A stretch of DNA of 64,000 nt, from IMG/VR virus record IMGVR_UViG_3300035181_001003, positions 24,309-88,308 of that record; one strand, given 5' to 3'. The translations under genes were made by a program, and so were the position numbers. Within the stretch, counting starts at the first letter, position 1; each line of letters opens with the position of its first letter. Origin of the DNA: a virus. This document shows positions 32,416-43,101 of this stretch, piece after piece. Below the pieces are notes generated by a model. It made no database searches. It was not told where the DNA came from and saw only the letters and a list, made by a program, of their open reading frames with translations.

Positions 32416-32447
32416 AAAATACTTTCTGCATTTGTTAAAGATAAGTA

Positions 32448-32533
32448 ATTATACACTACAACCTGCTAAATGTACACACTTATTTAGGTTATTTTGTAAC
32501 CAAAATGTGTAACAATTCTTGTAACTTTGTAAC
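32448..32533 (-). promoter_or_regulatory. Early promoter P4 with TGTAAC repeats
   Basis: TATAAT (32448-32453) is preceded on the minus strand by a CAGGTTGTAGTG block, AGTGTGTAC (32472-32480), a GGTTACAAAATAACC inverted repeat (32488-32502) and further GTTACA copies to 32533. About 45 bases of the upstream part are nearly identical to those of P6. Confidence 0.75.
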
Positions 32534-32538
32534 AAGAT

Positions 32539-34567: not shown

Positions 34568-34765
34568 TTATTCGACCTTTGATACTGGAGAACCCACAAG
34601 TTCCAAAATCTGATAACTGATAATCAAGCCCTCTTCGAGCATTCTATCTCCTAATTCATTGAGCAGATAGACACTATCTTCCTCTGCAAGAAGATAGTCT
34701 TTGTCGGTATGCATGAGACGAACTCGGCCATCGAGATGCTCGGCCATGATTGTAAAGTGTCTCAT
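34568..34765 (-). CDS. Hypothetical protein, 65 aa
   Basis: Not recognised. It begins MRHFTIMAEHLDGRVRLMHT. Its start overlaps the stop of the AAA+ ATPase gene by one base, so it is translationally coupled to it. Confidence 0.6.
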   Translation of the reverse strand: MRHFTIMAEHLDGRVRLMHTDKDYLLAEEDSVYLLNELGDRMLEEGLIISYQILELVGSPVSKVE

Positions 34766-35730
34766 TATGCAGCATTCAACAGGTATTCTGCCCGCCGTTC
34801 CCAGTTATCTCCACGACCTGCAACCTTCGTAACAGCAATCAAAGTCCGCAGATTCAAATCCGTGGCTTCATCTTTCATCTTGTCGAGGAAAGCAAGAGCC
34901 ATTTTCTTGGTGTTCAATTCGTATTCAGGCAAGAAGTCATCCCCCTTGATGATAGCTCCCATGCGTTCAATCTTCTGAGCAGTCGTCATGGACAAATCAA
35001 CACATATTGCACGAGACCGGATAGCTTGATCGATTTTGTAGAGTGGGAAATTCGAGATGAAGATCACACCACCAGTGAATTCAAACGAGCGAGGAAGATC
35101 ATCGTCACCGAAAGACTCGGCATTCCAAGAAATGATGCGACGATCATAGGAATCGAGAGCACCTTTCAAAAGGTTCAGGGCAACAGGGTCACGGAGAATA
35201 GAATCACAGTCATCGAAGATCACAATACGATTACGGTTTTCGTAGAGAGTGCGGTAGAGACCCTTAGCAGTCGAGTAGCCTTTGACTACTGAGTAAATCT
35301 TCGCAGACACAGAAGGATTCAAAAGGGAGTCAGATCCGAACCCGACCAGATCAGCAGTATTTTGGAGACCGGCATTTTGAAGGGCTTTGTTGACTGTGAA
35401 AGTTTTTCCAAGACCACCTTCACCAGTTACGATAACTGAAGCACAGGTGTGGTCAGCAACCATGTTAACAAAGTCGGTCATAAAGTCGAAACGTTCATTG
35501 ATCGAAAAACGATCAACCTTCTCGGTCTTTCCAGTTGTAACATTCACAGTAGCTTCGCCAACCTCACGAACTTCAGTTACACCCGCAGCTACGGCTTTAG
35601 TGCAACGACCGGAGCGGATATTACCTATCACATAGTCCTTGTTAGGAGAGGAAGCCAGAATCTTTCCGTTGAAGGAGGCCACCCACTTGTTTGTGGAGGT
35701 CTGAAAGGAGAGAGTAGCAACATGGGACAT
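34765..35730 (-). CDS. AAA+ family ATPase, intact paralogue of the intein-split ATPase
   Basis: A 321-aa protein. A basic N-terminal region of about 90 residues precedes a P-loop domain with Walker A VTGEGGLGKT (about 118-127), Walker B RIVIFDDCDS (about 182-191), a sensor-like GGVIFISNFP, and RSRAICVDL, which contains a candidate Arg finger. It aligns along the ATPase core with the split protein (42046-43020 plus 39980-41032): both have FEFTG..IFISN.PL.K. and end ...NWERR/LV.. . Its role is unknown, perhaps remodelling or DNA transactions. It is the first gene after promoter P5 and is expected to be early. Confidence 0.8.
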   Translation of the reverse strand: MSHVATLSFQTSTNKWVASFNGKILASSPNKDYVIGNIRSGRCTKAVAAGVTEVREVGEATVNVTTGKTEKVDRFSINERFDFMTDFVNMVADHTCASVIVTGEGGLGKTFTVNKALQNAGLQNTADLVGFGSDSLLNPSVSAKIYSVVKGYSTAKGLYRTLYENRNRIVIFDDCDSILRDPVALNLLKGALDSYDRRIISWNAESFGDDDLPRSFEFTGGVIFISNFPLYKIDQAIRSRAICVDLSMTTAQKIERMGAIIKGDDFLPEYELNTKKMALAFLDKMKDEATDLNLRTLIAVTKVAGRGDNWERRAEYLLNAA

Positions 35731-37343: not shown

Positions 37344-37672
37344 ACAGTATTCAAGGCCGGGCGGCCTTCTTTCTTCAGTTGGGTTTCGAGAGTGTGGGCT
37401 GCAGCCTTACCACGAACAAAGCAAATGATTTCCTTGTGGAAAACTTCTGGACCATACTTACGAATGGATTCGCAAAGCTTCCAGCCTTTGTCTTGATTGA
37501 AGGCACGACCTACGTGACGTGACCAACGAGCAGCTAAAGTTTCCTTGCCCGAACGATCTACACAAACAGCCAGACCAATGTAGGTTTCCGAGGTAACGCA
37601 GTTAGTAAGAAGATAGATGATGTGAGATCTATCGGTTCTACGCTTTCTGGAGGACTTTAGCTTTTTGGTCAT
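37340..37672 (-). CDS. Small GIY-YIG nuclease-domain protein
   Basis: A 110-aa protein with HIIYLLTNCVTSETYIGLAV (the GIY-YIG strand pair), the catalytic-type Arg in AARWSRHVGRAF, and a Glu in THTLETQL-type context near the end. It has no separate DNA-binding domain. It is the first gene after early promoter P6, so it is expressed as part of the early programme rather than as an inserted element. Confidence 0.75.
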   Translation of the reverse strand: MTKKLKSSRKRRTDRSHIIYLLTNCVTSETYIGLAVCVDRSGKETLAARWSRHVGRAFNQDKGWKLCESIRKYGPEVFHKEIICFVRGKAAAHTLETQLKKEGRPALNTV

Positions 37673-37677
37673 AAGTA

Positions 37678-37756
37678 ATTATACCCTACAACCTGAGGAA
37701 AGTACACAGTTTTCAGGTTATTTTGTAACCAAAATGTGTAACAATTCTTGTAACTC
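37678..37756 (-). promoter_or_regulatory. Early promoter P6 with TGTAAC repeats
   Basis: TATAAT (37678-37683) is preceded on the minus strand by a CAGGTTGTAGGG block, ACTGTGTAC (37702-37710), a GGTTACAAAATAACC inverted repeat and further GTTACA copies to 37756. The upstream 45 bases nearly duplicate those of P4. The outermost copy touches the stop of the nucleotidyltransferase gene. Confidence 0.75.
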
Positions 37757-37758
37757 TG

Positions 37759-38790
37759 TTACAGTTTTGCTATGAGTTCTTTTGACTTAGATCTAAGCAT
37801 CTCTTTTGTAGCTTCAGCTCTATTCTTCGCATCAACAGTAGCTGCTTTCTCAAATTTCGATGCATTTGCTGCATCTTCTGCCTTAGCAATATAGGATGCC
37901 TTGACTTTCGATATAAAATCAGAGTAGTCTTTAATATGTTTCAAATCGCCCTGGCCCCACATATTATTAAGCTCAAAAGACTTGCCCATTCCGCGAACAG
38001 CATTTGCTAAATCGTCGAATTTAATATCTCCTCTCTTCATACCGGGGTTTGAATTAAGTAGTGGAGCAATTTTCGGTTTGCTTCCAGTAGCATGAGTGCG
38101 ATTGTATAGGTAATTGAAAGTATCTAAAGCAAAATGTCCAATATCAGTTGTAATAGTATTAACGCTATCAACCTTTATTTTCTTAAATGGAACCATTTCA
38201 CCATCAATATGTTTTACTTGAACACCAGAAGTGCCAATACTTACATTTAATAACTCACTTAATGAAGCATAAAGGAATCCCATTAGAGCTCCCTTTAATC
38301 CATACTCGGGGGTCATACGATGGGTAGTCCAATCCTCAGTCTCAGTAAATGCTGCTACTAAATCTACTTGCGCCCACTTATCATCTCCTACTGAGACGGT
38401 AATATTAGTTCCATTTTCAGAACCACCATCGTAAATGTAAGAAGGTTTTTCATCCTTAATGAATGAGATAACCATTTGACGATATAGGGATTGATTCTTG
38501 CTCTCAGTTGTCCCTTGAATACGTGGCATTGAAAAGATAATATCAATGTCTCCATATTCTTTATCTGGATGCTCCTTCAAATCTCTTTCAAGATATGCAG
38601 TTGAACCGATTGGCTTACCAATTTTAATAGGAGCATAATCGTGCGTCTTCAAATAAGCATTAAACTCTTTTTCGAATTTAGGCATATTAGCTAATGCTTT
38701 CTTTGCTGTAGCTGGGGTAAGCTTTACGTCTTGCGTAATAGTCTTAGACCAACCGCCCATTTCGGTAATAAATTGCTTGAAGGAAATCAT
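37759..38790 (-). CDS. Nucleotidyltransferase with capsid-targeting-like leader, 343 aa
   Basis: The ATG at 38790 follows the stop of the preceding gene. A longer in-frame start lies inside that gene and is rejected. The leader MISFKQFITEM ends in I-T-E, like T4 internal-protein leaders. The catalytic pattern of the DNA-polymerase-beta-type nucleotidyltransferases is complete: Gly62-Ser63, Asp81-Ile-Asp83 in YGDIDIIF, and Asp143 in AQVDLVAAF. It may be injected with the DNA and transfer NMP to a host target (inference). The 56460-57341 gene encodes a second enzyme with the same leader and motif set. Confidence 0.75.
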   Translation of the reverse strand: MISFKQFITEMGGWSKTITQDVKLTPATAKKALANMPKFEKEFNAYLKTHDYAPIKIGKPIGSTAYLERDLKEHPDKEYGDIDIIFSMPRIQGTTESKNQSLYRQMVISFIKDEKPSYIYDGGSENGTNITVSVGDDKWAQVDLVAAFTETEDWTTHRMTPEYGLKGALMGFLYASLSELLNVSIGTSGVQVKHIDGEMVPFKKIKVDSVNTITTDIGHFALDTFNYLYNRTHATGSKPKIAPLLNSNPGMKRGDIKFDDLANAVRGMGKSFELNNMWGQGDLKHIKDYSDFISKVKASYIAKAEDAANASKFEKAATVDAKNRAEATKEMLRSKSKELIAKL

Positions 38791-38791
38791 T

Positions 38792-39097
38792 TTAGGATGC
38801 CATCTCTCTGCAAGTTTTAAATCCAGCGTAAAAAGACTTCTCATCAAATGAGATAGGGCTTCCGCCACCATAATACATCTTGTTGAAAATTTCTTTTGGA
38901 TCTCCTGATGGATCTGCTTGACAACAAAACCATCCGATTTGCCATCCCATGATGTCATACTTCTTTTCACCACCTGCTTGAATGAAAGCAGGCTTCATTC
39001 GTGGGTCAGTAGGAATAACTTCTTTCTTCTTGAAAAATTTCTTCACCTTATCAAGTATAGGACCTTCTTGAACGAACTGTTTGAATGAAGTTTTCAT
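38792..39097 (-). CDS. Small predicted internal-head protein, 101 aa
   Basis: From the ATG at 39097 the product starts MKTSFKQFVQEGP, nearly matching the T4 IPII/IPIII leader style (MKTYQEFIAE), with a probable cleavage after V-Q-E. The remainder is basic then globular (KKFFKKKEVIPTDPRMKPAF; MGWQIGWFCCQADPSG) with no recognised family. A perfect late promoter TATAAATA lies 83 nt upstream, which fits a virion protein. Confidence 0.7.
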   Translation of the reverse strand: MKTSFKQFVQEGPILDKVKKFFKKKEVIPTDPRMKPAFIQAGGEKKYDIMGWQIGWFCCQADPSGDPKEIFNKMYYGGGSPISFDEKSFYAGFKTCREMAS

Positions 39098-39924
39098 ATT
39101 ATGCACCTAAAATTTGGTGATCTCCGACTATTTTGACCAGAACCTAAAGCTTTAACCATTTGACTTACTGATTGATAGATATTTATACCATCTACAGTAC
39201 ATTGGCGGGTTTTTGGCTTTTTATGAGGTTTTCGCATATTAGATTTGGCTTCTTCAGAGTGCTTTTTACCAATGCGATCTTGTCTAATATTCTCTTTAGC
39301 TTCTTCTGATACAGGTTTTCTATCTACCCCAGATTTAAACTTCTTTCCCTTTAGAGACTTAGAGATATTCAAACATGTTTCTTCTGTTCTCTTCTGCCCA
39401 GTACCACCTTCTGATATTTTCTTCTTGTGCTCTTCAGTTAAAGTTTTACCGGTTAGAGAAGCTCTAATCTTTTCTCTTGCTTCTGGGGTATGAGTATAAC
39501 TGTTGTTTGCTTTTCGAGTAGCTACTACTTTTTCATACCACTCTTTAGTGCGAACATATTGCTTAGAAGCTTTAGAAAGTTTAGCTGACGTTTCTTCTTT
39601 AGTAGCTGGTCTATCATAATAGCCTTCACCACCAGGTCCGCAGTTCATACACTTTGGATCCTTTCTTAGTTCAGCAGTAATAAGTTCTCTTTCTTTATCT
39701 GATGCAGCCTGTCTATTTTCTAATTCGAATAAGATTTCAGTCTTATGTGCAGCTTCACCATATTTTCTAATCGATTTTCTAAGCCTAACCCCACTTCCCA
39801 GATAACCATCATTTAGATTATCAGTGCTGTGCATGCCTATATAGAATGCATTTGTTTCTATACATGTCGTTTTATAAACTATGTGATGTTTTCTGTTTGA
39901 TGCTCTTACATATTTCTTTTCCAT
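39094..39924 (-). CDS. GIY-YIG homing endonuclease with NUMOD3 repeats
   Basis: A 276-aa protein with an N-terminal GIY-YIG domain (HHIVYKTTCIETNAFYIGMH; LRKSIRKYGEAAH). About four NUMOD3 DNA-binding repeats follow (PEAREKIRASLTGKTLTEEH; SEEAKENIRQDRIGKKHSEE). The end is NUMOD1/IENR-like (CTVDGINIYQSVSQMVKALG). This architecture is the Seg/Mob class of free-standing phage homing endonucleases. It lies between the C-terminal half of the split ATPase and the internal-head genes. Its 3' end carries the late promoter used by the next gene. Confidence 0.88.
   Translation of the reverse strand: MEKKYVRASNRKHHIVYKTTCIETNAFYIGMHSTDNLNDGYLGSGVRLRKSIRKYGEAAHKTEILFELENRQAASDKERELITAELRKDPKCMNCGPGGEGYYDRPATKEETSAKLSKASKQYVRTKEWYEKVVATRKANNSYTHTPEAREKIRASLTGKTLTEEHKKKISEGGTGQKRTEETCLNISKSLKGKKFKSGVDRKPVSEEAKENIRQDRIGKKHSEEAKSNMRKPHKKPKTRQCTVDGINIYQSVSQMVKALGSGQNSRRSPNFRCII
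39180..39187 (-). promoter_or_regulatory. T4-type late promoter (perfect TATAAATA)
   Basis: The minus strand reads TATAAATA within the 3' end of the homing-endonuclease gene, 83 nt upstream of the small internal-head gene start (39097). It is the only perfect match to the T4 late consensus that I found near a gene start in this window. Confidence 0.65.
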
Positions 39925-39979
39925 AATAAAATACTCTCATTGTTTAGATAAGAGTATTATAGAAATCGGCAAAAACAGG

Positions 39980-41032
39980 TCATGCATATAGGGAAACCAG
40001 GCGCTCCCAGTTGGGCGCACCAGATGCTGCAAGGTTAAGAGCTCGAACAAGCTTACGAAGAGATACATCTCCCTTGCGCTTTGACTTCTTGACAACTGTT
40101 AGAACATTCTCACGTTCTTCATTTGAGAGTGAAAGGCCATCTTCGAGTTTAATTTCGTGAAGAATCTTTTCCATGTGCTCGTAAAGCTCTTCATCCGTTG
40201 GATCGATGTTGATGACGAAGGCTCGAGTTCGAAGCGCACCATCTGGATCAAGCTTGCTTAATGGCAAGTTAGAAATAAAGATGATGCGCCCAGTGAATTC
40301 AAAATGCCGTGGCAACTTGTCCGCATCTTCTGCATACTCTTCTGCATCTTCATGTTCTGGATCATACATACCTGCAGACTTTTTGTTCCAAGCAATCTTG
40401 CGGTGCTTCTTGGTATCAGTAGCTGCTTTGATAAGGTTACGACCATCTTGATCGGCCAAAGCTCCATCGGAGTCATCAAACAAAAGAATGCCGTCGCGGT
40501 GCTTGTAGAGAAGCGAGTAGATACCGAGTGCGGAAGCCGTACCAGTATTCTTGAAGTAACCGTTACCATCTGACAAACCATGATTATGAAGAACCTTTTC
40601 AACAGTCTGTGTCTTACCTGTATTATGGCTTTGAATACCATCTGCTGTTACAAAAATTTGATCATTAGAATCAACAGATAAGTCATAAGCAAACATCTCA
40701 TTTTCGGTAATTGTTACAGCTTTAACAATATCAATACCATTTCTTGTACGAATTTTATCTCCTGGCACCATATTATAAACAAAATGTGCTTTTCCATTTT
40801 CGGCAATATACATATGATTGGAAAGACACTCATGCTTGATACCTGACTCAAATTCAACAAAAGCTTGATTTCCCTTTTTCTTTATAAATCCAATAGTAGG
40901 TTTAAACCCATTTGGGGTTTCAATCATTATATCAGAAATTTTGTACAAGTGCCCAATTTCTAGTTCTTCAATCTTATATGTGTCTTTAACATACTGCTCT
41001 AGCCAATACATATTGACTTGTATATACTGCAT
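39980..41032 (-). CDS. C-terminal split intein fused to the C-terminal half of an AAA+ ATPase
   Basis: A 350-aa protein. Residues 1-137 are an intein C-part: block-B-like SGIKHECLSNHMYI (about 63-76), block-F-like FAYDLSVDSNDQIFVTADG (about 114-132), and the terminal QSHN with its Asn137. Thr138 is the +1 residue and starts the C-extein TGKTQTVEKVLHNHG. Residues 138-350 supply the second half of Walker A, Walker B ILLFDDSDG, and sensor and Arg regions (IIFISNLPLSKL; LRTRAFVINID). Joined to the protein from 42046-43020, it restores FVAGKGG-TGKT. AAAGGA lies eight bases before the ATG. No endonuclease domain is in the intein itself. Confidence 0.9.
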   Translation of the reverse strand: MQYIQVNMYWLEQYVKDTYKIEELEIGHLYKISDIMIETPNGFKPTIGFIKKKGNQAFVEFESGIKHECLSNHMYIAENGKAHFVYNMVPGDKIRTRNGIDIVKAVTITENEMFAYDLSVDSNDQIFVTADGIQSHNTGKTQTVEKVLHNHGLSDGNGYFKNTGTASALGIYSLLYKHRDGILLFDDSDGALADQDGRNLIKAATDTKKHRKIAWNKKSAGMYDPEHEDAEEYAEDADKLPRHFEFTGRIIFISNLPLSKLDPDGALRTRAFVINIDPTDEELYEHMEKILHEIKLEDGLSLSNEERENVLTVVKKSKRKGDVSLRKLVRALNLAASGAPNWERLVSLYA

Positions 41033-41033
41033 A

Positions 41034-42089
41034 TTAATTTTCCTTTACGATGAATTCAACAGCCTGAATAAGATATTTATTCCAAAGTTCATTATCATAT
41101 GTTTCTGGAATTCTTAAAACCGAATAACCTAATTCTTTTAGCATTTTATCTCTTTTTTCATCTTCTATGGTTTTTTCAGAATGCCAATATTTTCCATCAA
41201 ATTCTATTACCTTCTTAGTTAATTGATGATAAAAATCTAAATATATGCGTCTTTTTGAACTAATATAAATGCATTCTTCGTTATCACCATACTTGAATTC
41301 ATTTTCTAAATAACCATATTTTTTAAGCTCTAATAATAATTCGGTAAAAAATTTTTTGGATATTTTTGAAACTTTTGATGGCATCTGAGCTTTTTGTGCA
41401 AGATAGGCTTCTTTTTGTGCTTGTTCTAATGTGTATCCTCTGTGTAACCAATATTCTATACTTAATTTACTTCTAAGTTTTTGTAAATTAGATATTTCCT
41501 TTTTCGCATATTCCTTTGAATATCCCTTGTTTAACCAATACTCGATACAGTTATTTCTTCTTTTCTTTTGAACTTCACTTTGTGCCCTAATTGCTTCATC
41601 TTTATTAATACCCCTTTGCAAATAATATTGTAAAGAAATTGGATTGTTAAAAACAGTTTTCTTTTTTCTTTTACTTAGTTTAGTTTGGATTTCTGATACT
41701 TTTTTAATAGCATCTTTTTCAGATAATCCGTGATGTTTAATCCAAAATTCTTTCATACACGGAGTTAAACCTCCAGAAGAATTTTTTATTATATTATCCT
41801 TACTTTTTATTAATGAACTTATTTCTTCTTCACTCCATCCAAATATATTTTTATACTGATCACTAGAAAATGTCCCGGATCGCATGTGTAAAACATCTTT
41901 ACGTAAGTCTAGATGAAATAGATTCATTCCTGAATAAATTGGATTTCTTGAAAGAAGTGATAAAAGGCTATCTTTAACTTGTGGTGTTAAAGATCGCCAG
42001 CTTTTTGATACTCGTTTAAGATGAGGAATAATTTCTTCTATCGTTTTAATTATGATTGGCAATCTTGTTTTCGGTTTGATGATTATCAT
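41034..42089 (-). CDS. Free-standing Vsr-like (EDxHD-type) homing endonuclease between the split-intein halves
   Basis: A 351-aa protein. The C-terminal 75 residues match the very-short-patch-repair-like fold: IYLDFYHQLTKKVIEFDGKY, then WHSEKTIEDEKRDKMLKELG and YSVLRIPE, with the E..D..H..D residues of the EDxHD class. Four repeats of about 30-40 residues precede it, of the form (F/Y)W(L/I)..GYS.E.A...(I/S).. Q (at about 115, 155, 184 and 213), probably DNA-binding. The gene is visibly more AT-rich than its neighbours, a sign of recent arrival. Its start overlaps the N-part gene by 44 nt, and the C-part gene starts two bases after its stop. Confidence 0.85.
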   Translation of the reverse strand: MIIIKPKTRLPIIIKTIEEIIPHLKRVSKSWRSLTPQVKDSLLSLLSRNPIYSGMNLFHLDLRKDVLHMRSGTFSSDQYKNIFGWSEEEISSLIKSKDNIIKNSSGGLTPCMKEFWIKHHGLSEKDAIKKVSEIQTKLSKRKKKTVFNNPISLQYYLQRGINKDEAIRAQSEVQKKRRNNCIEYWLNKGYSKEYAKKEISNLQKLRSKLSIEYWLHRGYTLEQAQKEAYLAQKAQMPSKVSKISKKFFTELLLELKKYGYLENEFKYGDNEECIYISSKRRIYLDFYHQLTKKVIEFDGKYWHSEKTIEDEKRDKMLKELGYSVLRIPETYDNELWNKYLIQAVEFIVKEN

Positions 42090-43020
42090 TTAAATTTATT
42101 GATGAATTATTAACCATAACATTTACAAGAGTTGAACCTGAAAACGATCCACCCTTACCAGCAACAAAGAGAGCGTTGAATGCCCCCTTTATGGTACCTG
42201 TTACGAGACCTTCCAAGTGTTCAAGGGTGTCACCAAATGGAATGCGTTCAGCGGTATCCTTTTCAACTTGCTCTTCCTGCTTGGTCTTCATGAAGGATTC
42301 ATCTGTACCACCTTGGGTTACAGTGATGACTCCTGCCTTTGAAAGAATAGAGTCCTTAAGAGAGTCGATCTTCGAACCTGGCTTTAGCGAAACTCTCCTG
42401 GCATCAATTTGAAACCTGTCATTGAAGTCCCTGAAGACTGTGTCAAAGATACCGGCATTGATAATGTGGTAGGAACCAATGAATTCAGAACGGGTGAATG
42501 TCTTGCCTGCTGCGAGTTTTCCGAGGAAGTCATTGAGAGCAGCTTCAGGCGAGAATGCATCCCGCGCAACTTCCATGATAACTGACTCAGACAAAGCTTC
42601 AACAGGGCTAACTGGGAAGGCACGAACATGACCAATTGTTGGAGAATGAAGAATTGCTACAAGAGCTGGCAGTGATTGCGCGAAGGAAATACCCTTGCAG
42701 TGAATGCTGAACGTTGGATCAGCAGACTTACCATTGAAGATGTCGATGGAGTGAATCTCACTAGTCTTACCAGCTGAAGCTTCAGAACCCCAGTTGAAGC
42801 GAAGACAGCGCGTTGTACCTGAAAATACATAGCGAATACCATACCCGCTGTCAGTGGAATTGTGAAAATGCTCAATTCCAGGAATCCTGATGAGCTTTTC
42901 ATCCATCTTTCGTTGGATAAACTTGATCATCTTCTCCATGGCTAGGGCTACGCTGGCAGTTCCAACCGTAGCTTCCTTGATAAGTTCATGGTGCGCGTTT
43001 GCAAGTACAAGTAGTTTCAT
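42046..43020 (-). CDS. N-terminal half of an AAA+ ATPase fused to a short N-terminal split intein
   Basis: A 324-aa protein. Residues 1-291 are the N-extein: an unassigned N-terminal domain of about 220 residues (IRYVFSGTTRCLRFNWGSEA; SLKPGSKIDSLKDS), then IPFGDTLEHLEGLVTG and ALFVAGKGG, the first half of Walker A. Residues 292-324 (SFSGSTLVNVMVNN...IANHN) form a 33-residue intein N-part beginning with Ser1 and block A. The very early break point, before block B, makes this an atypically split intein. The spliced product would be about 504 aa. Confidence 0.9.
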   Translation of the reverse strand: MKLLVLANAHHELIKEATVGTASVALAMEKMIKFIQRKMDEKLIRIPGIEHFHNSTDSGYGIRYVFSGTTRCLRFNWGSEASAGKTSEIHSIDIFNGKSADPTFSIHCKGISFAQSLPALVAILHSPTIGHVRAFPVSPVEALSESVIMEVARDAFSPEAALNDFLGKLAAGKTFTRSEFIGSYHIINAGIFDTVFRDFNDRFQIDARRVSLKPGSKIDSLKDSILSKAGVITVTQGGTDESFMKTKQEEQVEKDTAERIPFGDTLEHLEGLVTGTIKGAFNALFVAGKGGSFSGSTLVNVMVNNSSINLNDNHQTENKIANHN

Positions 43021-43055
43021 ATTCTCGAGCAGGTTATATGGTAATTATTACCTTT

Positions 43056-43063
43056 TATTTATC
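43056..43063 (-). promoter_or_regulatory. Late-promoter-like GATAAATA
   Basis: The minus strand reads GATAAATA, one base from TATAAATA, 36 nt upstream of the ATPase N-half start. It is immediately downstream of a terminator-like hairpin, so the split ATPase probably begins its own transcript here. Confidence 0.4.
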
Positions 43064-43075
43064 ACTGCTCAAACA

Positions 43076-43101
43076 AAATAGGAGCCCAAAGACTCCTATT
43101 T
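43076..43101 (-). terminator. Intrinsic terminator
   Basis: A 9-bp stem (AAATAGGAG / CTCCTATTT) with an 8-nt loop is followed on the minus strand by TTTTGTTTG. It separates the small genes at 43.3 kb from the split ATPase. The gap 43102-43249 shows only a frame-disrupted coding-like stretch (WSECSQLGVDLSVKTGPTAD). Confidence 0.6.

What the first reader, a model, noticed from the sequence alone, without database searches (positions are those of the whole stretch)
39980..43020. An AAA+ ATPase gene broken inside its Walker A motif by an atypically split, trans-splicing intein
The gene at 42046-43020 ends ...FVAGKGG followed by a 33-residue intein-like N-part starting Ser-Phe-Ser-Gly. The gene at 39980-41032 begins with 137 residues carrying intein blocks B and F and ends SHN, then TGKTQ. 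Joining the exteins gives GKGGTGKT, a perfect P-loop, and an ATPase that aligns with the intact paralogue at 34765-35730. Three features combine: a very short N-part, Ser as the first residue with Thr at +1, and an independent endonuclease gene between the halves. That is the 'fractured gene' arrangement known from phage metagenomes. Placing it in a P-loop makes ATPase activity fully dependent on splicing.
Basis: partly seen in the sequence, partly recalled or inferred. Interest (0 to 1): 0.92.

Follow-up and report, generated by a model that had tools for sequence, protein, structure and literature searches.

The report
Phage ATPase gene split by intein
A bacterial virus carries an ATPase gene cut in two exactly inside its ATP-binding loop by a split intein and a probable DNA-cutting gene, so the enzyme most likely has to be stitched together after translation; related viruses show the uncut gene and other copies cut in the same loop.

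Summary
A 1526-bp AT-rich insert (40622-42147) interrupts a T4 NrdC.10-type AAA+ ATPase between GKGG and TGKT of Walker A. It encodes a 33-aa intein N-part, a DUF559-type endonuclease gene and a 137-aa intein C-part. An intact relative (L008) aligns with the joined exteins over 504 of 504 residues without a gap, and the DNA match breaks and resumes at the splice junctions. Profile search and fold comparison point to inteins, VidaL and gp41-1 above all; several single-sequence searches fail. P-loop insertion, atypical splits and fractured genes are each known, so this is a variant of a known kind. Unusual here: Ser1/Thr+1 in an atypically split intein with no histidine where motif NX would lie. 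Relatives add: five lineages split in this loop at two sites three residues apart; predicted N-parts of 13 aa (reported natural range 15-37); one lineage without an endonuclease gene between the halves, whose intein parts look under purifying selection; and two contigs with identical exteins and C-part but different N-part and endonuclease. Splicing, cleavage and homing are inferred, not shown.

The parts
42148..43020 (-). N-extein, 291 codons, ending VAGKGG (first half of Walker A)
   Evidence: 78.0% identical to codons 1-291 of L008, no gaps
42049..42147 (-). intein N-part, 33 codons from Ser1 (stop at 42046-42048); its last ~14 codons overlap the endonuclease reading frame
   Evidence: start fixed by the empty site
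41034..42089 (-). probable homing endonuclease gene, 351 aa: YWLxxGxSxxxA-type repeats (three by a simple pattern), then a DUF559-type domain
   Evidence: PF04480 29.6 bits, cut-off 20.6; related genes between the halves of other fractured copies
40622..41032 (-). intein C-part, 137 codons with its own ATG behind an AAGGA, ending SHN
39980..40621 (-). C-extein, 213 codons plus stop, starting TGKT (second half of Walker A)
   Evidence: phrog_1250 2e-27; 82.6% identical to L008
40622..42147 (-). whole inserted element, 1526 bp, absent from L008
34765..35730 (-). intact paralogue of the ATPase (T4 NrdC.10 type, phrog_1250)

Best explanation
The insert is a mobile, atypically split intein with a free-standing endonuclease gene between its halves (a 'fractured gene'). 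Each half of the ATPase is translated on its own. The 33-aa N-part docks on the 137-aa C-part to form one Hint domain. Ser1 takes the N-extein by an N-O acyl shift, Thr+1 takes it over, Asn137 cyclises, and a seamless 504-aa ATPase with the P-loop GKGGTGKT results. The endonuclease most likely cuts the uninterrupted P-loop sequence of related phages so that repair copies in the whole unit. Shown here: exact insertion at the junctions, intein homology and predicted fold of the C-part, intact relatives, parallel cases, and signs of purifying selection on both intein halves in a pair of relatives, one without an endonuclease gene between the halves. Inferred: splicing of this copy, its Ser1 chemistry, DNA cleavage and homing.
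For: Intact 504-aa relative without gaps; DNA break at both junctions. TIGR01443 over cut-off. Window C-part vs Vibrio phage Kuja terminase 34.8%, 2e-8; the Klebsiella phage Magnus record annotates its related element as an intein. Profiles vs PDB: A2 (four NrdC.10 C-parts) best CatC 1.2e-6, VidaL 1.7e-6, gp41-1 3.3e-6; A3 (nine C-parts) best VidaL 8e-28. Foldseek: VidaL first, 28 of 28 at E <= 0.001 are inteins. Parallel copies in the same loop: L011, L046, L092-L095, L118-L121. L011 vs L119 dN/dS (NG86): C-part 0.120/0.952, N-part 0.273/1.044, C-extein 0.146/1.261, N-extein 0.354/1.318. No RNA family at E <= 1 in 39900-43100, so no sign of a group I or II intron.
Against: No Pfam family for either half or for the two parts alone. 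The Pfam intein profile run over the whole virus record finds only the RNA-ligase locus, not this one. Phmmer of the window C-part, or of the whole C-half, against the PDB finds no intein. The C-part of the sibling L046 has no tblastn match at 0.01 in the phage records. Ser1 stands among NrdC.10 copies that are otherwise Cys1, with no histidine in C-part residues 29-66 where motif NX would lie, so this copy could splice poorly. The model is moderate (pLDDT 72.6, pTM 0.47) and lacks the N-part. The tree does not settle where the window intein belongs.
Confidence: 0.88

Rival explanations
1. The intein of this copy is dead or nearly so: a Cys1 to Ser1 change without the supporting histidine leaves a broken ATPase, covered by the intact paralogue.
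For: The other NrdC.10 copies read here are Cys1; no histidine in C-part residues 29-66; a paralogue is present; Cys1-to-Ser changes inactivated several inteins (PMC10189870 introduction).
Against: Both halves are full length and in frame; the C-extein shows dN 0.145, dS 1.78 against L008, though much of that divergence may precede the insertion; an atypically split intein with serine and cysteine nucleophiles is published (title seen in a reference list), and L156 looks like another Ser1 case (by eye).
Confidence: 0.13
2. Gene in pieces without splicing: an endonuclease gene broke the ATPase and the two polypeptides work together unspliced, as reported for a phage ribonucleotide reductase.
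For: Such a case exists (passage and reference in PMC10448857).
Against: The break lies inside the phosphate-binding loop, and the C-half carries 137 extra residues of intein fold ending in the HN splice motif.
Confidence: 0.04
3. A self-splicing intron with an endonuclease gene, joined at RNA level.
For: T4 carries such an intron in nrdD with I-TevII (annotation).
Against: No Rfam match at E <= 1; both intein parts are continuous in frame with their exteins and conserved as protein in relatives.
Confidence: 0.02
4. Assembly or sequencing artefact.
For: A virus record of IMG/VR type, probably metagenomic.
Against: Identical over 17,050 bases in L006 and L007; other lineages have the same layout.
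Confidence: 0.01

Closest known systems
Fractured genes with split inteins and free-standing homing endonucleases (Dassa et al. 2009, NAR; paper not held, known from citations and recall)
   Same: gene broken at an intein site, endonuclease gene between the halves
   Different: here the split lies near the N-terminus, the host is a NrdC.10-type ATPase, and one related lineage has no endonuclease gene between the halves
VidaL, AceL-TerL, GOS-TerL and CatC atypically split inteins
   Same: short N-part, long C-part; VidaL is the best structural match
   Different: host protein; Ser1/Thr+1 here, whereas VidaL, AceL-TerL and GOS-TerL are called cysteine-dependent (PMC13014065 passages)
PolB16 OarG intein, described in 2026 as the only known natural, cysteine-less, atypically split intein (PMC13014065; PMC10189870)
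   Same: Ser1, no catalytic Cys, atypical split, non-catalytic Cys present
   Different: PolB16 is Ser1/Ser+1 with a 15-aa N-part and needs the motif-NX histidine; here Ser1/Thr+1, 33 aa, no such histidine found
Contiguous TerL mini-inteins of Ackermannviridae (phages Kuja, VAP7, Magnus, IME250)
   Same: sequence relatives of the C-part, inserted in RQSGK|TT of the terminase in 4 of 4 read
   Different: one polypeptide, Cys1, no endonuclease gene between halves

Membership tests
intein, class 1 (Hint splicing domain) | nucleophile at residue 1 and at +1 | tested here: met
   Ser1 and Thr+1, placed by the empty site
intein, class 1 (Hint splicing domain) | N3 (block B) histidine, conserved G and D of later blocks, C-terminal HN | tested here: met
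   H73, G91, G99, D117, G132, H136, N137 invariant in 9 of 9 aligned C-parts; TIGR01443 over cut-off
intein, class 1 (Hint splicing domain) | Hint fold | tested here: met
   C-part without N-part: Foldseek VidaL 1.2e-6, 28 of 28 at E <= 0.001 inteins; VIA-align Z 8.5, rmsd 4.0, 102 aligned; model pLDDT 72.6
intein, class 1 (Hint splicing domain) | splicing activity | not testable with these tools
   needs expression of both halves
atypically split intein | natural split near the N-terminus, N-part about 15-37 aa | tested here: met
   33 aa here; range from PMC13014065
fractured gene | free-standing endonuclease gene between the two halves | tested here: met
   41034-42089, PF04480 over cut-off, by sequence only
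fractured gene | endonuclease cuts the uninterrupted site | not testable with these tools
   no assay; PF04480 is by name a family of unknown function
cysteine-less (Ser1) intein subgroup | only Ser or Thr at 1 and +1 | tested here: met
   one other Cys at C-part residue 69
cysteine-less (Ser1) intein subgroup | motif NX: His preceded by Arg or Lys, upstream of the N3 His (2 of 58 published members have Tyr or Asn instead) | tested here: not met
   No His in residues 29-66, that is 7 to 44 residues before H73; the only [RK]H pair is K66-H67. The spacing is 41 in PolB16 and 22 in CP21 PolB1 by my reading of its K-H pair. Caveat: MAFFT alignments with CP21 were unstable. I do not file it in this subgroup
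T4 NrdC.10-type AAA+ ATPase (phrog_1250) | similarity over the ATPase domain and an intact Walker A once joined | tested here: met
   phrog_1250 2e-27 on the C-half; T4 NrdC.10 28.9% over 253 columns, 3e-23; AAA+ chains among VIA-align rows for residues 139-350

The most novel reading that the evidence does not exclude
In this P-loop the split has turned the intein into a two-part element: a C-part that stays, and an exchangeable cassette of endonuclease plus ultra-short N-part (13-14 aa in relatives) that is swapped between phages. The C-part would accept different N-parts, and the split can outlive loss of the endonuclease. In the window copy, Ser1/Thr+1 chemistry would run without the motif-NX histidine, by an activation route not yet described.
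Probability: 0.35. Interest if true: 0.75.

Novelty: new variant of a known kind. Interest (0 to 1): 0.6.

Why it matters
[quoted passage not shown] a 2026 paper names one natural example (PMC13014065 passages). By its junction residues the window offers a second, and relatives offer predicted N-parts of 13 aa, shorter than the 15 aa called the shortest characterised (PMC10189870 abstract). The family also gives natural controls for intein evolution at one ATP-binding loop: intact, fractured with different endonuclease genes, and fractured without one between the halves.

Tried and rejected
Profile searches of single sequences (Pfam, PDB phmmer) gave no intein; the whole-record Pfam intein search missed this locus; tblastn of the L046 C-part in the phage records gave nothing. 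A nine-row alignment was too diverse for a collection scan. One scan of genome contigs with A1 matched 95 stretches, none confirmed. The endonuclease model is poor (pLDDT 56.2) and was not searched for folds. The intein tree is unresolved, with long branches and the NrdC.10 set as one group in 20% of bootstrap trees. dN/dS by YN00 failed, and a first N-extein comparison was cut at a wrong TGKT and redone. MAFFT alignment of the window C-part with the CP21 PolB1 N-part, meant to place motif NX, was unstable, so that test rests on spacing. LR756502 (L097), fetched because its match ran into the intein part, is intact there.

Full report
What is there. On the minus strand three genes follow one another: 42046-43020 (324 aa), 41034-42089 (351 aa) and 39980-41032 (350 aa). 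The first ends VAGKGG and then SFSGSTLVNV..., 33 residues; the third starts with 137 residues that end SHN and goes on TGKTQ. The endonuclease frame starts inside the end of the first gene, and the C-half starts one base after the endonuclease stop codon, behind an AAGGA.

The junction is exact. L008 (IMGVR 3300045993_000648) holds the same gene as one ORF of 504 aa. The joined exteins align with it over 504 of 504 residues, no gap, 80.0% identity: 78.0% in the N-extein, 82.6% in the C-extein. At DNA level the match ends one base short of the Ser1 codon and resumes at the Thr+1 codon. The insert is 1526 bp at 28.4% G+C between exteins of 46.3% and 45.3%. L006 and L007 are identical to the window over 17,050 bases.

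What the gene is. The C-half matches phrog_1250 (2e-27) and the paralogue P0004 matches it at 2.4e-58. T4 NrdC.10 matches the joined exteins at 28.9% over 253 columns, 3e-23 and is annotated 'hypothetical protein'. By tblastn P0001 has matches in 1155 of 50,697 phage records, all under 60% identity. One paper of the held library mentions NrdC.10 (listing seen, not read). I know of no stated function.

Why it is an intein. The C-part passes the curated cut-off of TIGR01443 (22.6 against 15.6 bits). By tblastn the C-part alone has matches at E <= 1 in 60 phage records, best 2e-8, many of them annotated terminase large subunits. In Klebsiella phage Magnus the submitters annotate the element as an intein, and in the four such terminases that I read it interrupts RQSGK|TT. 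A profile of four NrdC.10 C-parts has as best PDB matches CatC 1.2e-6, VidaL 1.7e-6 and gp41-1 3.3e-6; with TerL, PhoH and UvsX-type relatives added (A3) VidaL reaches 8e-28. An AlphaFold model of the C-half (pLDDT 72.6) gives VidaL first in Foldseek, and 28 of 28 matches at E <= 0.001 are inteins; residues 139-350 align with AAA+ ATPases. Against this stand the negative searches. The N-part has no independent match; it rests on position and counterparts. No RNA family reaches E 1.

Not a single case. Of the 80 loci kept from the scan with P0001 (86 had been confirmed), 76 show an uninterrupted Walker A by motif and 4 are fractured: L006 and L007 (window type), L011, L046. A second scan gave 37 loci, 28 intact and 9 fractured: L111-L115, which are the contigs of L092-L095 and L046, and L118-L121. 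In all, 12 contigs besides the window's record, in five lineages by my grouping, are split in this loop. Window, L011 and L118-L121 are split at GG|TGKT; L046 and L092-L095 at GK|T, three residues on. N-parts are 33 aa in the window, 13 in L011, L094 (with L092, L095) and L118-L121, 14 in L093, 20 in L046. The window is the only Ser1 among these. A related C-part also sits fractured in a PhoH gene (PF02562, GKAG|TGKT, L107) and unsplit in a RecA-type gene (PF00154, GDSG|SGKS, L106).

Two natural experiments. First, L118-L121 have both intein parts but only 144 bp between the genes, too little for an endonuclease gene; a piece of the 3' end of the L011 endonuclease gene still aligns there, so loss is the likely reading. 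Between L011 and L119, dN/dS by NG86 is 0.120/0.952 for the C-part and 0.273/1.044 for the 13-codon N-part, like the exteins (0.146/1.261 and 0.354/1.318). One pair, dS near 1, simple method: suggestive, not proof. Second, L093 and L094 have identical N-exteins (316 of 316 residues) and identical C-halves (356 of 356) but different N-parts. Their DNA is 98.0% identical up to the second base of the Cys1 codon, then diverges through the N-part and nearly all of the endonuclease gene (the proteins are 43% identical), then is 99.6% identical from 32 bases before the end of that gene. The simplest reading is that N-part and endonuclease moved as a cassette.

The endonuclease. PF04480 DUF559 at 29.6 bits (cut-off 20.6). 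The genes between the other halves are related (BLAST 1e-10 to 2e-18 with the window copy; composition correction off and repeats present, so optimistic). By eye they share YWxxxGxSxxEA repeats with varying C-terminal parts; Pfam gives the others nothing over cut-off. The 9 phage records matched by the window gene at 1e-3 are all Prevotella Lak phages, over residues 152-228 only; in the one I fetched, Lak-B4, the hit lies beside a RecA-type gene with what looks like a canonical intein N-part.

Comparison with what is known. P-loop insertion between Lys and Thr is called a classic site, and about 70% of inteins are said to lie in ATP-binding proteins (passages of PMC5050341). Natural atypical N-parts span 15-37 aa, and PolB16 is called the only natural cysteine-less atypically split intein (passages of PMC13014065). 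PolB16's 15 aa was the shortest characterised, and in the 58 Ser1 inteins examined two lacked the motif-NX histidine (PMC10189870, abstract and sections). The window intein has Ser1/Thr+1 but no histidine in C-part residues 29-66, where the spacings of PolB16 (41) and CP21 PolB1 (22) would put it; alignment could not place the motif. I do not file it in that subgroup. Three typically split cysteine-less candidates reported in 2025, CP21 among them, are said to have the motif (passage of PMC12707363). Dassa et al. 2009 and Bachmann and Mootz 2015 were not held; what I say of them rests on titles in reference lists and recall. Block names and the order of the splicing steps are standard knowledge, also given in the passages.

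Verdict. A real, exactly placed, atypically split intein in a fractured phage ATPase gene. The kind is known; the Ser1/Thr+1 combination without the NX histidine, the 13-aa relatives, the copies without endonuclease between the halves and the cassette exchange are the parts worth a specialist's time. Splicing, cleavage and homing are not shown.

Noticed in passing
own virus record G000:C1 14855-17468 (outside the window; L003): A second fractured gene: T4 RNA ligase 1 type (PF09511 positions 1-55 on one half, 63-227 on the other) split after KRDG with a 99-aa N-part and a 34-aa C-part, a canonical split, and an ORF on the opposite strand between them.
   Followed up: partly
L118-L121 (e.g. L119:4954-7056): Split intein at the same P-loop with no endonuclease gene between the halves; 13-aa N-part.
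   Followed up: yes
L093:2265-3641 and L094:2140-3642: N-part plus endonuclease differ between contigs with identical exteins and C-part; DNA identity breaks at the Cys1 codon.
   Followed up: yes
L107:1171-4433 (LR756500.1), same sequence in L148: PIN-PhoH gene (PF13638, PF02562) fractured at GKAG|TGKT with a related endonuclease gene and C-part.
   Followed up: partly
L106:3210-5195 (Salicola phage SCTP-2): RecA-type gene with two intein stretches (PF14890, 62 bits), the first in the P-loop; both look Cys1.
   Followed up: partly
L110:5478-6398 (Prevotella phage Lak-B4): RecA-type gene with an intein-like N-part (PF14890 21 bits, below cut-off) beside a stretch resembling the window endonuclease repeats.
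   Followed up: partly
L156:3065-4721: Terminase gene split, by eye, at QEFE|CEFLGS with a Ser1 N-part of 36 aa and no endonuclease gene between the halves.
   Followed up: partly
window 39094-39924: ORF with NUMOD3 motifs and a GIY-YIG-like start (by eye), a probable free-standing homing endonuclease just downstream of the C-half.
   Followed up: partly
window about 32441-32534 and 37671-37763: A 94-bp direct repeat, 89.4% identical, seen as a side match in the comparison with L006 and L007.
   Followed up: no
L094:6859-7041 and L093:6859-7135: Tandem repeat of about 75 bp downstream of the C-half (offset matches).
   Followed up: no
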